Positions 14,042 through 18,068 of a DNA stretch of 64,000 nucleotides are shown here, one piece after another; position 1 is the stretch's first letter, and every line of letters begins with the position of its first letter. Source of the stretch: Aeropyrum camini SY1 = JCM 12091 (lineage in GTDB: Archaea; Thermoproteota; Thermoprotei_A; Sulfolobales; Acidilobaceae); assembly GCF_000591035.1 (NCBI RefSeq), contig NC_022521.1:1116001-1180000 (forward strand), in the 5' to 3' direction. Under the pieces are notes generated by a model. It saw only the letters and a program-made list of their open reading frames with translations, ran no database searches and had not been told where the DNA came from. The position numbers and the translations under genes were made by a program.

Positions 14042-15307
14042 TCAACCGACTCTGAGACCTCCTCTACCGAGGAGTTCGTGAGCCTTGGCTAGCTGGCCAG
14101 CAGCTATAGCTGCAAGCAGGTTTAGCTCCCCCGCGAGCACTGCAGAAGCTACTATTTCAGCGAACTTCAGCGCGTTGGATCCCGGGGGGTTCCCGCCGCC
14201 AGCTACGCCTAGCAGGGCCAGTAGTTCTCTCTGGGTAGGTAGCCTCGTGCCCCCTCCTACAGTCCCCACTTCGAGGCTAGGAAGAGTTACACTTATGTAG
14301 AGGTCCTCGCCCCTTACCTCGGTCCATGTATAGCCCATACTGCTCTCGACAACCTGCGCCGCATCCTGGCCTGTAGCTATGAATATAGCCGCTATGATGT
14401 TGGCGAAATGAGCGTTAAACGAGAGGCTGCCTGCTGCAGCGCTACCTAGGAGGTTTTTTGTAGTGTTAACTAGGTCTATGCTTTGGGGGGTGGTTTTTAG
14501 AACTTCTCTGATTATGTTACCCTTAATAAGAGCCTCAGCAACAACATACTTCCCCCTACCCAGTATCTTGTTTATCGCAGCTGGCTTCTTGTCGGTGCAC
14601 ATGTTTCCGCTGAGTGCCACACACTTGGCATCACCCCCATAGTTCTCCTCTATGTAGCGGCATATTCTATCGCTCGATATGGTAACCATGTTCATGCCCA
14701 TGGCGTCCCCGGTTGAGAACGTGAGCCTGAGCCACACCAGGTTGCCTATTATGTAGGGGTAGATGTGCTGAAGCTTCCCATGCCGTGTAACCCCACCTAC
14801 AACCCTTCTGAGGTCCTCTATCCTCTCCTCCACCCACCTGGCCAGCCTGTAGGCCTCGTCAACGCTGGGAGTCCAGAGTAGCGGAGCCCTGGTCATACCA
14901 TCCCTTATAACCCTAGCCCTAGCACCCCCGGATAGAGTTATGGCTTTTGCGCCACGGTTTACACTAGCCACTAGAGCGCCCTCAGTGGTCGCTAGCGGGA
15001 TGTAGAAGTCTCCCCTGGCATATTCTCCGTTGACCCTGAGGGGTCCAGCTATACCTACTGGAACCTGCACAGCCCCTATAGGGTTCTCAATATTCCTCCC
15101 GTAGAGCTCCTGGAAGTCGAGTATAGTGCTCGCCACTCCCGAAAGGTTTGCACCTGTAACCCTCTCCAGGAAAAGCCTCCTGACGAGGGCTGCCTCGTTA
15201 GCATTACCCAGCTCTCTCTCGAGCCGGGAGTGGGTCAGGCTACCATTAGCAAGCCTGTCAACCAGGTCCTCTATCTTATTAGGCTTTTGGCCTGAACTTG
15301 ACCCCAT
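14042..15307 (-). CDS. hmgA: 3-hydroxy-3-methylglutaryl-CoA reductase (class I)
   Basis: Makes mevalonate from HMG-CoA with two NAD(P)H, the committed step to archaeal isoprenoid lipids. 421 aa without any membrane anchor. Signature blocks: ENPIGAVQVPVGIAGPL, the catalytic TTEGALVAS (Glu), GDAMGMNM (Asp), DKKPAAIN (catalytic Lys) and the dinucleotide-binding GTVGGGT; the C-terminal catalytic His lies in AKAHELLG. The start overlaps the end of the DUF35 gene by 29 bases. It is the last gene of the HMG-CoA synthase-thiolase-DUF35-reductase operon, so all early mevalonate steps are co-encoded. Confidence 0.96.
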   Translation of the reverse strand: MGSSSGQKPNKIEDLVDRLANGSLTHSRLERELGNANEAALVRRLFLERVTGANLSGVASTILDFQELYGRNIENPIGAVQVPVGIAGPLRVNGEYARGDFYIPLATTEGALVASVNRGAKAITLSGGARARVIRDGMTRAPLLWTPSVDEAYRLARWVEERIEDLRRVVGGVTRHGKLQHIYPYIIGNLVWLRLTFSTGDAMGMNMVTISSDRICRYIEENYGGDAKCVALSGNMCTDKKPAAINKILGRGKYVVAEALIKGNIIREVLKTTPQSIDLVNTTKNLLGSAAAGSLSFNAHFANIIAAIFIATGQDAAQVVESSMGYTWTEVRGEDLYISVTLPSLEVGTVGGGTRLPTQRELLALLGVAGGGNPPGSNALKFAEIVASAVLAGELNLLAAIAAGQLAKAHELLGRGGLRVG

Positions 15308-15689
15308 AGACTATCACTCCCTCATCGCCGTCTTCATAGATCCTTCTGAAAACCGCCTCAACCTGCATGCCTCTCTCCAGGATCTTGGGGTCGCCGTAGT
15401 CAACTATCTCTGTAACAACCTTAGCAACGCCTAGGTCGACGAGGCCTATGACAACCGGGCTCTTATCCCTGGCACCGCTCTCGACGGAGTAGAGCACCGT
15501 GTAGGCCTCGAGTCTCCCAACCCTCGGTAGCTCCGTTTCGGCTACGTTACGCGATCCACAGTAGGGGCAGGCCTTCGCAGGGGGGTAGAATGACCTGCCG
15601 CAATCGCTGCATTTACCCCCCAGCAGCCTATACCTGGGGAGTCTAGTGCGCCATTCCCTAACAGTTGACTCCCTAGACACCGGCACCAC
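15279..15689 (-). CDS. DUF35 Zn-ribbon/OB-fold acyl-CoA scaffold protein
   Basis: 136 aa. An N-terminal rubredoxin-like zinc ribbon has C27, C30, C41 and C44, followed by an OB-fold beta domain (RVGRLEAYTVLYSV onward). In methanogens this family bridges acetoacetyl-CoA thiolase and HMG-CoA synthase and lets the CoA intermediate pass between their active sites. The gene sits 3 bases after the thiolase-homologue stop and overlaps hmgA, in agreement with that role. Confidence 0.9.
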   Translation of the reverse strand: MVPVSRESTVREWRTRLPRYRLLGGKCSDCGRSFYPPAKACPYCGSRNVAETELPRVGRLEAYTVLYSVESGARDKSPVVIGLVDLGVAKVVTEIVDYGDPKILERGMQVEAVFRRIYEDGDEGVIVYGVKFRPKA

Positions 15690-15692
15690 CCC

Positions 15693-16826
15693 CTACGACT
15701 TGTCGGAAGCTAGTACGGCTATGTATGCGGACGATCCGTGGCCGTTTATCGATACCGCAGCCCCAGATCTAGCGTCGGGAGCGCTAACCCCCGGGAATAC
15801 ACCTGCCAGCTGCATCGCTACCTCGCCCAACATGTACACCCCGGTAGCCCCGCCTGTGTGGCCTCTGGCCTTAAGCCCTCCGCTTGCATTCACCGTCGGA
15901 CCTTCTCCCGAGGATGTAAAATAGCCTTCCGCAACTCTTATCGCCGCAGTACCTTTTTCAGCGAGGCCAAGGGACTCCAGGATTATTATGCCTGTTATCG
16001 TGTAGGAGTCGTGGATCTCAAGCACATCCACGCTCCTAATACCGGCAGAAGACCTCGCCTTATCCCACGCCTCCTTCACAGCAGGCATAACCAGGGGGTC
16101 GTCTAGGTGTGAGACCGAGATGGGGCCTGAGGCCGCTTCCACAGACTTCAACACGGCAAGGCCCCCATCGCCTCTGGACAGCGCCACAGCCGCCGCACCA
16201 TCTCCCATGGCAAACGTGTCAAGCATCGTGAGGGGTAGGGCGACGGGCATCGCATCCTTAACCGCCTCGGGCTTGATAGCGAACCTGAGCATGGCGTACG
16301 GGTTCTCCTTAGCGTTGCTATGCATTAGAGCTGGCCAGTAGGAGAGCGTGTCACGGTCTACCCCATACATGCTCATGTACAAGTCCGCCAGCAAGCCGTG
16401 TATGGCTGCGTGGGAAATCGGGTATACACCGTCCCAGTCCACGTTGTAAACACCCTTAAGTATGCTGTATACTCTGCTGCTTGGAGCGTCGGACATCTTG
16501 TCAACACCCAGGAGAACCACTCGTTTACCCTCCGCGGCCAGCCTGGCGGCCGTTACGGCTGCTGCGAGGCCGGAGGCCTCACCAGCCTCCACCGTTATGG
16601 CTGTAGCACCTCCGAATCCGAGGCTTGAAGCGATGTAGCTGGCAATGTCTGCCTGTCCAGAGAGTCTCGGGTAGACAAAGCTGGAGACCACAACAGCATC
16701 TATCCTACTCCAGCCCGCGTCGCTTAAAGCAGCCTCCAAAGCCTCCTTAGCCAGATCCTCAGCCCCGCTGCCGAAATGCCTGCCAACCCTCACCATTCCT
16801 ACACTCTTTATAGCCACGTTAAGCAA
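15693..16826 (-). CDS. Archaeal thiolase homologue lacking the nucleophilic Cys (Glu83)
   Basis: 377 aa, archaeal thiolase (SCP2-thiolase type) by overall layout: EIHDSYTI in the second half, VNASGGLKARGH with the catalytic His, and a terminal SINGHGSSAY glycine block. The expected nucleophile motif, normally VEAACASGG in relatives, reads VEAGEASG here, with Glu83 (codon GAG at 16578-16580) at the Cys position. The GHP motif is GHT. Surrounding residues are intact and the frame is clean, so this is not a decayed gene. As written it cannot form the acyl-Cys intermediate of acetoacetyl-CoA thiolase. A structural subunit, or a decarboxylating activity analogous to KSQ domains, is possible; both are inference. 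It starts at a TTG after GGAGGTG, downstream of HMG-CoA synthase. Confidence 0.9.
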   Translation of the reverse strand: MLNVAIKSVGMVRVGRHFGSGAEDLAKEALEAALSDAGWSRIDAVVVSSFVYPRLSGQADIASYIASSLGFGGATAITVEAGEASGLAAAVTAARLAAEGKRVVLLGVDKMSDAPSSRVYSILKGVYNVDWDGVYPISHAAIHGLLADLYMSMYGVDRDTLSYWPALMHSNAKENPYAMLRFAIKPEAVKDAMPVALPLTMLDTFAMGDGAAAVALSRGDGGLAVLKSVEAASGPISVSHLDDPLVMPAVKEAWDKARSSAGIRSVDVLEIHDSYTITGIIILESLGLAEKGTAAIRVAEGYFTSSGEGPTVNASGGLKARGHTGGATGVYMLGEVAMQLAGVFPGVSAPDARSGAAVSINGHGSSAYIAVLASDKS

Positions 16827-16867: not shown

Positions 16868-17953
16868 CTAAAGCTTCCTAACAACGAGCTTGCCCCTGAT
16901 CTTTGCGTATACCCCATAGTCCACCTCTATCCTCCTCTTCAGATAGTACTCCAGAGGCTGTGCTAAAGGCCTGGCATCCTCTATAGCGTCGGTCACTAGG
17001 AGGCTGTAGGCGTCGCTCCCAGCGCCGCTTCCGAAGGGGGCAACGAGTATCCTATCACCCGGCTTGGCCACGTCCAGCACCTTAACAAGGCCTAGCAGGG
17101 CGCTGGCGTTGTAGGTGTTACCTATAAATGGTGTCACTAGACCTGGCTTCACCTGCTCCAGGGTGAAGCCCAGCTTCTTAGCAACCTTGACAGGGAACTT
17201 GCCGTTGGGCTGGTGGAAGATAGCGTAGTCGAAGTCGCCCGGCGACAGGCCGGTCTTCTCGAAGAGGCCTTTAACAGCGCTCTCTATATGGTGGAAGTAT
17301 GCTGGATCCCCCGTGAAGCCCTCTCCATGGCTTGGATAGGGTTTCAGGCTTCTCCTCCAGAAGTCGGGTGTGTCGGTGACGTAGGTGAAGCTGGCCTCGA
17401 AAACGGCGGCAGCCCCCTTGGAGGAGCCTATGACGAACGCTGCGGCACCGCTGGAGGCGCTGAACTCTAGCACGTCACCGGGGCTGGCCTGGGCGGTGTC
17501 GCTGCCCACAACAAGGGTGTAGCTAATAATGCCCGATGCGACCAGCCCTATGGAAGCCCTCATCCCCTCACTGGCGGCTCTACAAGCGAACTCAAGATCG
17601 CTTGCCATGGTAACAGGCGTTATTCCAAGCGCCTCAGCTATTATAGTGGCGCTCGGCTTAACCGCGTAGGGCTTGGACTCGCTGCCGAAGAATACGGCGC
17701 CTATGCTCGAGGGGTCGACCCTAGCCCTGGCTATAGCGTTTCTAGCGGCCTCAACCCCCATTGTTGTGGAATCCTCATCCACACCCCCAACCGCCTTCTC
17801 ATACACATCAAGCGCCTTCCACTGGTGGTCAGGCCAGCCCCAGACCCTCGCTATCTCCCTAGTGGGGATCCTGTACACTGGAACGTAAGCTCCCCATCCG
17901 TGTATACCTGCAGACGACTCGGGCGTCTTACCCGCCAAGCTATCCATGGACAT
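16868..17953 (-). CDS. Hydroxymethylglutaryl-CoA synthase (archaeal type)
   Basis: Condenses acetyl-CoA with acetoacetyl-CoA to HMG-CoA. The thiolase-fold catalytic triad is visible: Glu in GGVDEDSTTM, Cys in EFACRAASEG and His in IFHQPNGKF; a PFIGNTYNAS block and GAGSDAYS complete the C-terminal half. About 361 aa. The frame opens at 17980 but ATG 17953 is chosen because GGTGTGGTG lies 6 bases before it. It is the first gene of the mevalonate operon. Confidence 0.94.
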   Translation of the reverse strand: MSMDSLAGKTPESSAGIHGWGAYVPVYRIPTREIARVWGWPDHQWKALDVYEKAVGGVDEDSTTMGVEAARNAIARARVDPSSIGAVFFGSESKPYAVKPSATIIAEALGITPVTMASDLEFACRAASEGMRASIGLVASGIISYTLVVGSDTAQASPGDVLEFSASSGAAAFVIGSSKGAAAVFEASFTYVTDTPDFWRRSLKPYPSHGEGFTGDPAYFHHIESAVKGLFEKTGLSPGDFDYAIFHQPNGKFPVKVAKKLGFTLEQVKPGLVTPFIGNTYNASALLGLVKVLDVAKPGDRILVAPFGSGAGSDAYSLLVTDAIEDARPLAQPLEYYLKRRIEVDYGVYAKIRGKLVVRKL

Positions 17954-18068
17954 TATAGACACCACACCAACCCGGGTCAAGCGGTTTACTTGTAGCCAAG
18001 ACTTAATAATGGTTCAGTCTATAGTATTACAGAGAATACGGCTATAGTCGAACGGAAGGGTGCTGCTG

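What the first reader, a model, noticed from the sequence alone, without database searches (positions are those of the whole stretch)
15693..16826. Thiolase homologue in the mevalonate operon has Glu83 in place of the catalytic Cys
Seen: the minus strand encodes VEAGEASG at residues 79-86, GAG at 16578-16580. Relatives carry Cys at this place in a VEAACASGG-type motif, and the GHP motif is GHT. Known: thiolases need this Cys to hold the acetyl group. In ketosynthases, Cys-to-Gln (KSQ) gives decarboxylases. Inference: the protein sits between HMG-CoA synthase and DUF35, so the known thiolase-DUF35-synthase complex may here contain a non-thiolytic subunit, either a structural gate or a decarboxylating source of acetoacetyl-CoA. 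The rest of the gene is intact.
Basis: partly seen in the sequence, partly recalled or inferred. Interest (0 to 1): 0.78.

Follow-up and report, generated by a model that had tools for sequence, protein, structure and literature searches.

The report
Cysteine-free thiolase in mevalonate operon
In many heat-loving archaea the protein annotated as the first enzyme of isoprenoid (membrane lipid) synthesis has lost the cysteine that does the chemistry, yet it is kept under strong selection in the operon, so it probably serves as a structural partner while another thiolase elsewhere in the genome does the reaction.

Summary
The 377-aa thiolase homologue (15693-16826, minus strand) has Glu83 aligned with Cys85 of the solved Methanothermococcus acetoacetyl-CoA thiolase, and contains no cysteine at all. 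It lies in an operon HMG-CoA synthase, thiolase-like, DUF35, HMG-CoA reductase. It is not a sequencing error: among 90 genomes of the order with this gene beside HMG-CoA synthase, 78 lack Cys (46 Glu, 25 Asp, 7 other), including all 20 of the window's family. A second Cys-less clade occurs elsewhere in the phylum. With the Cys went the C-terminal NxGG motif; fold and many other residues are invariant, and dN/dS is 0.06. Genomes with the Cys-less version almost always encode another, Cys-bearing thiolase (40 of 45 checked); genomes with the Cys version usually do not (2 of 15). The window's genome has such an enzyme, and no detectable carboxyltransferase to make malonyl-CoA. Best reading: a catalytically dead pseudo-thiolase kept as scaffold and CoA-site subunit of the HMG-CoA synthase/DUF35 complex, with acetoacetyl-CoA made by a separate thiolase. 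The decarboxylase idea is disfavoured. No paper describing this was found in the open library searched. Nothing was tested experimentally.

The parts
16868..17980 (-). HMG-CoA synthase (archaeal), catalytic Cys kept (EFACRAAS)
   Evidence: NCBIfam equivalog TIGR00748, 500 bits over cut-off 353; Cys motif read and in most HMGS of the loci
15693..16826 (-). Cys-less thiolase-like protein (pseudo-thiolase), 377 aa, TTG start
   Evidence: translation; Thiolase_N/Thiolase_C_1; no Cys; AlphaFold2 pLDDT 95.2; best PDB fold match 6et9_C, TM 0.94
16578..16580 (-). codon 83, GAG (Glu) at the nucleophile position
   Evidence: aligned with Cys85 of 6esq
16581..16583 (-). codon 82, Gly; Ala in all 32 Cys-bearing relatives, Gly in 65 of 69 Cys-less ones of the order
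16011..16013 (-). codon 272, His of the HD motif (kept here; lost in about a quarter of the Cys-less clade)
15858..15860 (-). codon 323, His of the GHP-type motif (here GHT)
15744..15752 (-). codons 359-361, Ser-Ile-Asn in place of the Asn-x-Gly of the C-terminal NxGG motif
15279..15689 (-). DUF35 protein (zinc ribbon plus OB fold), scaffold subunit of the known complex
   Evidence: PF12172 and PF01796 over cut-off; starts 3 bases after the thiolase-like stop
14042..15307 (-). HMG-CoA reductase, last gene of the operon (overlaps DUF35 by 29 bases)
   Evidence: TIGR00533, 509 bits over cut-off 442

Best explanation
The gene encodes a pseudo-thiolase: a thiolase-fold subunit of the archaeal HMG-CoA synthase/DUF35 complex that has lost the acyl-transfer chemistry and is retained for assembly of the complex and for its part of the shared CoA-binding site. 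Acetoacetyl-CoA is then made by a separate Cys-bearing thiolase (here probably the protein at 567,291-568,490 of the genome) and reaches HMG-CoA synthase from solution or by handover. Shown: loss of the nucleophile and of NxGG, conservation of fold, operon and selection, and presence of a separate Cys thiolase. Inferred: physical complex, scaffold role, which thiolase supplies acetoacetyl-CoA, and loss of direct channelling.
For: No cysteine in the protein. Cys absent in 78 of 90 HMGS-adjacent copies of the order. Loss is tied to the operon position: the closely related copies not beside HMGS keep Cys (the one exception sits at a contig end). Catalytic positions decay together: Cys 32/32 to 0/69, Asn359 31/32 to 6/69, His272 32/32 to 51/69, His323 31/32 to 47/69, while H169, D273, N313, K319, R321, Y331, E335 stay at 69/69. 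Purifying selection, dN/dS 0.064 between the two closest genomes. Faster divergence relative to HMGS: ratio 1.72 in Cys-less against 1.07 in Cys-bearing pairs. A separate Cys thiolase in 40 of 45 Cys-less genomes against 2 of 15 Cys-bearing ones, Fisher p 1.4e-7, not corrected for relatedness. Best PDB fold match is the thiolase chain of the HMGS complex. HMGS and DUF35 partners keep their own key Cys residues.
Against: An acidic residue is kept at the site in 62 of 69 sequences of the clade, which looks like more than decay. Both active-site His residues are kept in 43 of 81 Cys-less sequences, including this one. Five genomes of one family (f8) have no detectable Cys thiolase at all, only a second homologue with Ser at the site. 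The association with a second thiolase rests on very few independent changes in the tree. The complex itself is not shown for any of these organisms here.
Confidence: 0.7

Rival explanations
1. Repurposed enzyme: the acidic residue with His272 and His323 forms a new acid-base site acting on a CoA thioester (enolisation, retro-aldol, hydrolysis), as thiolase-fold aldolases Ltp2 and Sal do with DUF35 partners.
For: Glu or Asp in 62 of 69 sequences of the main clade and again in the second clade; both His kept here; thiolase-fold, DUF35-bound aldolases without the nucleophilic Cys are known (PMC12329534).
Against: The residue is Gly, Gln, Leu or His in other members in the same operon; His272 or His323 lost in 38 of 81; NxGG lost; the Tyr of the aldolase YDHF/YDCY motif is absent (HDSY here); no pathway step in this operon needs such an enzyme.
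Confidence: 0.13
2. KSQ-like decarboxylase that makes the acetyl-CoA enolate (and so acetoacetyl-CoA) from malonyl-CoA.
For: Loss of Cys in ketosynthases can give decarboxylases (general knowledge); Gln occurs at the site in two relatives (L050, L154).
Against: Glu/Asp rather than Gln in nearly all; no PF01039 carboxyltransferase found in this genome, control search rings in 12 of 14 genomes; NxGG lost; no nucleophile to hold the second acetyl group.
Confidence: 0.03
3. Still an acetoacetyl-CoA thiolase working without a covalent intermediate, by direct transfer between two CoA thioesters, with carboxylate and His as bases.
For: Five f8 genomes appear to have no Cys thiolase and must make acetoacetyl-CoA somehow; operon position is that of the true enzyme.
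Against: The other 40 genomes do have a Cys thiolase; catalytic motifs decay; in the f8 genomes the Ser-bearing second homologue is an equally good candidate.
Confidence: 0.06
4. The Cys-less subunit pairs with a Cys-bearing thiolase to form a mixed complex, as the inactive chain-length factor does with its ketosynthase, and tunes that partner.
For: Inactive thiolase-fold partners are known in PhlABC (PhlA).
Against: The replacement thiolases come from different families in different lineages, so no conserved partner interface is expected.
Confidence: 0.06
5. Decaying pseudogene product or sequencing error.
For: Faster evolution than the Cys-bearing form.
Against: Intact in dozens of independent genomes, dN/dS 0.064, invariant residues, operon kept.
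Confidence: 0.02

Closest known systems
[quoted passage not shown]
   Same: Gene set, fold of the thiolase-like subunit (TM 0.94 to 6et9_C), DUF35 and HMGS partners
   Different: Nucleophilic Cys85 is Glu83; HDCF is HDSY; the C-terminal NxGG motif of Cys-bearing relatives is SxNG; HMG-CoA reductase joins the operon
PhlABC (Friedel-Crafts acylase of Pseudomonas)
   Same: Three-part complex with DUF35 in which one thiolase-superfamily subunit is catalytically dead (PMC6392133, PMC2954200)
   Different: There the HMGS-like subunit PhlA lost its Cys and the thiolase PhlC kept it; here the reverse
Ltp2 and Sal steroid aldolases
   Same: Thiolase fold, DUF35 partner, no thiolase nucleophile (PMC12329534)
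   Different: They have a catalytic Tyr (YDHF/YDCY) and act on steroid side chains; here HDSY, in a mevalonate operon
ST0096 of Sulfolobus tokodaii (PDB 4YZO)
   Same: Archaeal thiolase-like protein without the Cys (Ser in VDNTSGSGG)
   Different: Its look-alikes L188-L191 form a separate branch of the tree and are not beside HMGS
Thiolase PFC_04095 of Pyrococcus furiosus (PDB 7YVY)
   Same: Close homologue, TM about 0.89
   Different: Keeps the Cys in a VEAACASGG-type motif (EAACASGG) and an Asn-Ile-Gly-Gly motif

Membership tests
Archaeal acetoacetyl-CoA thiolase (acetyl-CoA acetyltransferase) | Nucleophilic Cys in VEAACxSG | tested here: not met
   Glu83; no Cys in the protein
Archaeal acetoacetyl-CoA thiolase (acetyl-CoA acetyltransferase) | His of the GHP motif | tested here: met
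   H323, as GHT
Archaeal acetoacetyl-CoA thiolase (acetyl-CoA acetyltransferase) | His of the HDxF motif | tested here: met
   H272, as HDSY
Archaeal acetoacetyl-CoA thiolase (acetyl-CoA acetyltransferase) | C-terminal NxGG motif | tested here: not met
   SING here; N in 31 of 32 Cys-bearing relatives
Archaeal acetoacetyl-CoA thiolase (acetyl-CoA acetyltransferase) | Curated family score | tested here: not met
   NF004720 236 bits against cut-off 420; NF053570 173 against 600
Archaeal acetoacetyl-CoA thiolase (acetyl-CoA acetyltransferase) | Thiolase activity | not testable with these tools
   needs enzyme assay
Thiolase superfamily, SCP2/archaeal type | Fold and Pfam domains | tested here: met
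   PF22691 and PF00108 over cut-off; fold
Thiolase/DUF35/HMGS complex | Genes for the three subunits adjacent | tested here: met
Thiolase/DUF35/HMGS complex | Physical association and shared CoA site | not testable with these tools
   only single chains could be modelled
KSQ-type decarboxylase | Gln in place of the active-site Cys | tested here: not met
   Glu83
KSQ-type decarboxylase | Malonyl-CoA supply | tested here: not met
   no PF01039 match in the genome
Ltp2/Sal aldolase | Catalytic Tyr in YD(H/C)(F/Y) | tested here: not met
   HDSY; motif from PMC12329534
Ltp2/Sal aldolase | DUF35 partner | tested here: met
   adjacent DUF35 gene

The most novel reading that the evidence does not exclude
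The Glu/Asp version is a new catalytic type of thiolase-fold enzyme in which a carboxylate replaces the nucleophilic Cys, acting inside the HMG-CoA synthase complex (for instance as a general base that hands acetoacetyl-CoA or an acetyl-CoA enolate to HMG-CoA synthase), and it is spread across most of an archaeal order.
Probability: 0.15. Interest if true: 0.88.

Novelty: new variant of a known kind. Interest (0 to 1): 0.62.

Why it matters
The protein annotated as the first mevalonate-pathway enzyme in many Thermoproteota, including probably model Sulfolobaceae, is most likely not a thiolase. The text-book channelling complex (thiolase hands acetoacetyl-CoA directly to HMG-CoA synthase) would then not operate in these lineages, yet the dead subunit is kept. 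That makes a natural test of what the thiolase subunit does besides chemistry, changes pathway annotation and metabolic models for archaeal lipid synthesis, and points to which other thiolase really feeds the pathway.

Tried and rejected
Sequencing error: rejected by independent genomes. A shifted Cys in the nucleophile elbow: rejected, no Cys in the protein. One-off mutation in the window's genus: rejected. Convergent loss in many lineages: first suspected from the scatter of residues, but the tree needs only three changes. Malonyl-CoA decarboxylase: no carboxyltransferase found. W164, M168, Y331 and E335 as new scaffold residues of the Cys-less clade: rejected, they are equally fixed in Cys-bearing relatives of the same order. 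Independent-pairs test of Cys loss against a second thiolase: too few independent pairs for a p-value. The PNAS 2018 complex paper and the Ltp2 paper are not held, so contact residues could not be mapped. The essential-gene study of Sulfolobus islandicus is held but its main text does not name these genes.

Full report
Observation. The minus strand of 15693-16826 encodes a 377-residue thiolase homologue; residue 83 is Glu (GAG, 16578-16580) in VEAGEASG. The phmmer alignment puts it on the Cys of VEAACASG of PDB 6esq, residue 85 by count, the catalytic Cys85 named in PMC6392133. The protein has no cysteine at all. The window is bases 1,116,001-1,180,000 of a single 1,595,994-base contig; by that length I take it for Aeropyrum camini (from memory).

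Anatomy. The operon on the minus strand is HMG-CoA synthase (17980-16868), the thiolase-like gene, DUF35 (15689-15279) and HMG-CoA reductase (15307-14042), with gaps of 41 and 3 bases and a 29-base overlap. HMG-CoA synthase keeps its catalytic Cys (EFACRAAS) and DUF35 its four zinc cysteines. AlphaFold2 gives pLDDT 95.2. [quoted passage not shown] Against curated thiolase families the protein falls well below cut-off (236 of 420 and 173 of 600 bits).

Distribution. I collected the gene next to HMG-CoA synthase from genomes of the order and phylum. In the order, 90 genomes have a thiolase homologue beside HMGS: 12 have Cys, 46 Glu, 25 Asp, 4 Gly and one each Gln, Leu, His. All 20 of the window's family (f1; named relatives are Aeropyrum, Acidilobaceae, Caldisphaera, Thermodiscus), all 20 of f2, and all 19 of f11 lack it. 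Most of f7 (Pyrodictiaceae by named relatives) keep Cys. Outside the order eight further genomes lack it (Gly, Ser, Gln, Asp, Ala, Glu). Closely related copies not beside HMGS keep Cys. These are counts of fetched loci, not a full census.

Evolution. A tree of 119 sequences, with the trait columns left out, needs three changes between Cys and no Cys: one old clade holding nearly all Cys-less copies of the order, one clade outside the order, and a separate Ser-bearing group not beside HMGS. So the loss is ancient rather than repeated many times. Relative to HMGS the Cys-less copies diverge faster (ratio 1.72 against 1.07), yet dN/dS between the two nearest genomes is 0.064: relaxed in part, but under strong selection.

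What was lost and kept. From Cys-bearing to Cys-less copies: Cys83 32/32 to 0/69; Ala82 to Gly in 65/69; Asn359 31/32 to 6/69; Gly361 31/32 to 9/69; His272 32/32 to 51/69; His323 31/32 to 47/69. Kept at 69/69: H169, D273, N313, G316, G317, K319, R321, G322, Y331, E335. The chemistry is dismantled while fold, and probably CoA and partner contacts, are kept. Some of these residues are simply ancestral in the order, so they are not evidence for a new function.

Who makes acetoacetyl-CoA. In the window's genome a Cys thiolase (VEAACATG, NVGG) with its own DUF35 lies at 567,291-568,490; its orthologue is present in all 20 of these family genomes at 67-98% identity. Elsewhere the second thiolase is of other types: a classical NEAF/VCSSG thiolase (f6, parts of f5, f7, f11), a VEGACGSGG paralogue (f2), or a VENAC type (f2, f10). 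In all, 40 of 45 checked Cys-less genomes have a separate Cys thiolase against 2 of 15 genomes with the Cys-bearing copy (Fisher p 1.4e-7). The relatedness of the genomes makes that p-value too small: only one independent pair could be formed. The exception is five f8 genomes with only a Ser-bearing homologue (ENTSGSGG), like ST0096 of S. tokodaii.

Mechanism. Best supported is a pseudo-thiolase scaffold: the subunit holds DUF35 and HMGS together and contributes to the CoA site described for the Methanothermococcus complex, while acetoacetyl-CoA comes from a separate enzyme. A carboxylate-based new activity remains possible, because Glu/Asp dominates and both His residues are kept in 43 of 81 Cys-less sequences. 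The KSQ-like decarboxylase is unlikely: no carboxyltransferase was found in the genome.

Known context. Dead thiolase-fold subunits in DUF35 complexes are known: PhlA in PhlABC has lost the Cys of the HMGS-like subunit (PMC6392133, PMC2954200). Ltp2 and Sal lost the thiolase nucleophile and act as aldolases (PMC12329534). The present case is the mirror of PhlA: the thiolase-like subunit is dead and HMGS alive. I found no paper on it in the open library, but key papers on the archaeal complex are not held there, so prior mention cannot be excluded.

Noticed in passing
L188-L191, L325 (f8 genomes G019, G029, G008, G040, G048): These genomes have no detectable Cys-bearing thiolase; only the Cys-less HMGS-adjacent copy and a second homologue with Ser at the nucleophile (ENTSGSGG). 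How they make acetoacetyl-CoA is open; a Ser-nucleophile thiolase is possible.
   Followed up: partly
L003:269-2649, also L193, L339, L348: A conserved pair of adjacent thiolase-like genes, both without the nucleophilic Cys (VGGGTG and a deleted elbow), followed by two DUF35 genes in the window's genome; present in several families of the order.
   Followed up: no
L165-L172 (f12 and similar families): HMG-CoA synthase ORFs of about 510 aa with no thiolase homologue next to them; two read in full carry an N-terminal DUF35-like zinc ribbon/OB domain fused to HMG-CoA synthase.
   Followed up: partly
L034, L035, L104-L106, L123: Some Sulfolobaceae have lost one residue from the nucleophile elbow itself (ENGD-NGG), so the site is structurally altered, not only substituted.
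   Followed up: no
L131-L135, L138, L176 (f9): DUF35 stays beside HMG-CoA synthase while the Cys-bearing thiolase lies elsewhere in the genome.
   Followed up: no
L326 and L345 (G043): This f2 genome has two HMG-CoA synthase genes; the second (52% identity) is followed by a Cys-bearing thiolase (VESACASSG), the first by a Cys-less one.
   Followed up: no
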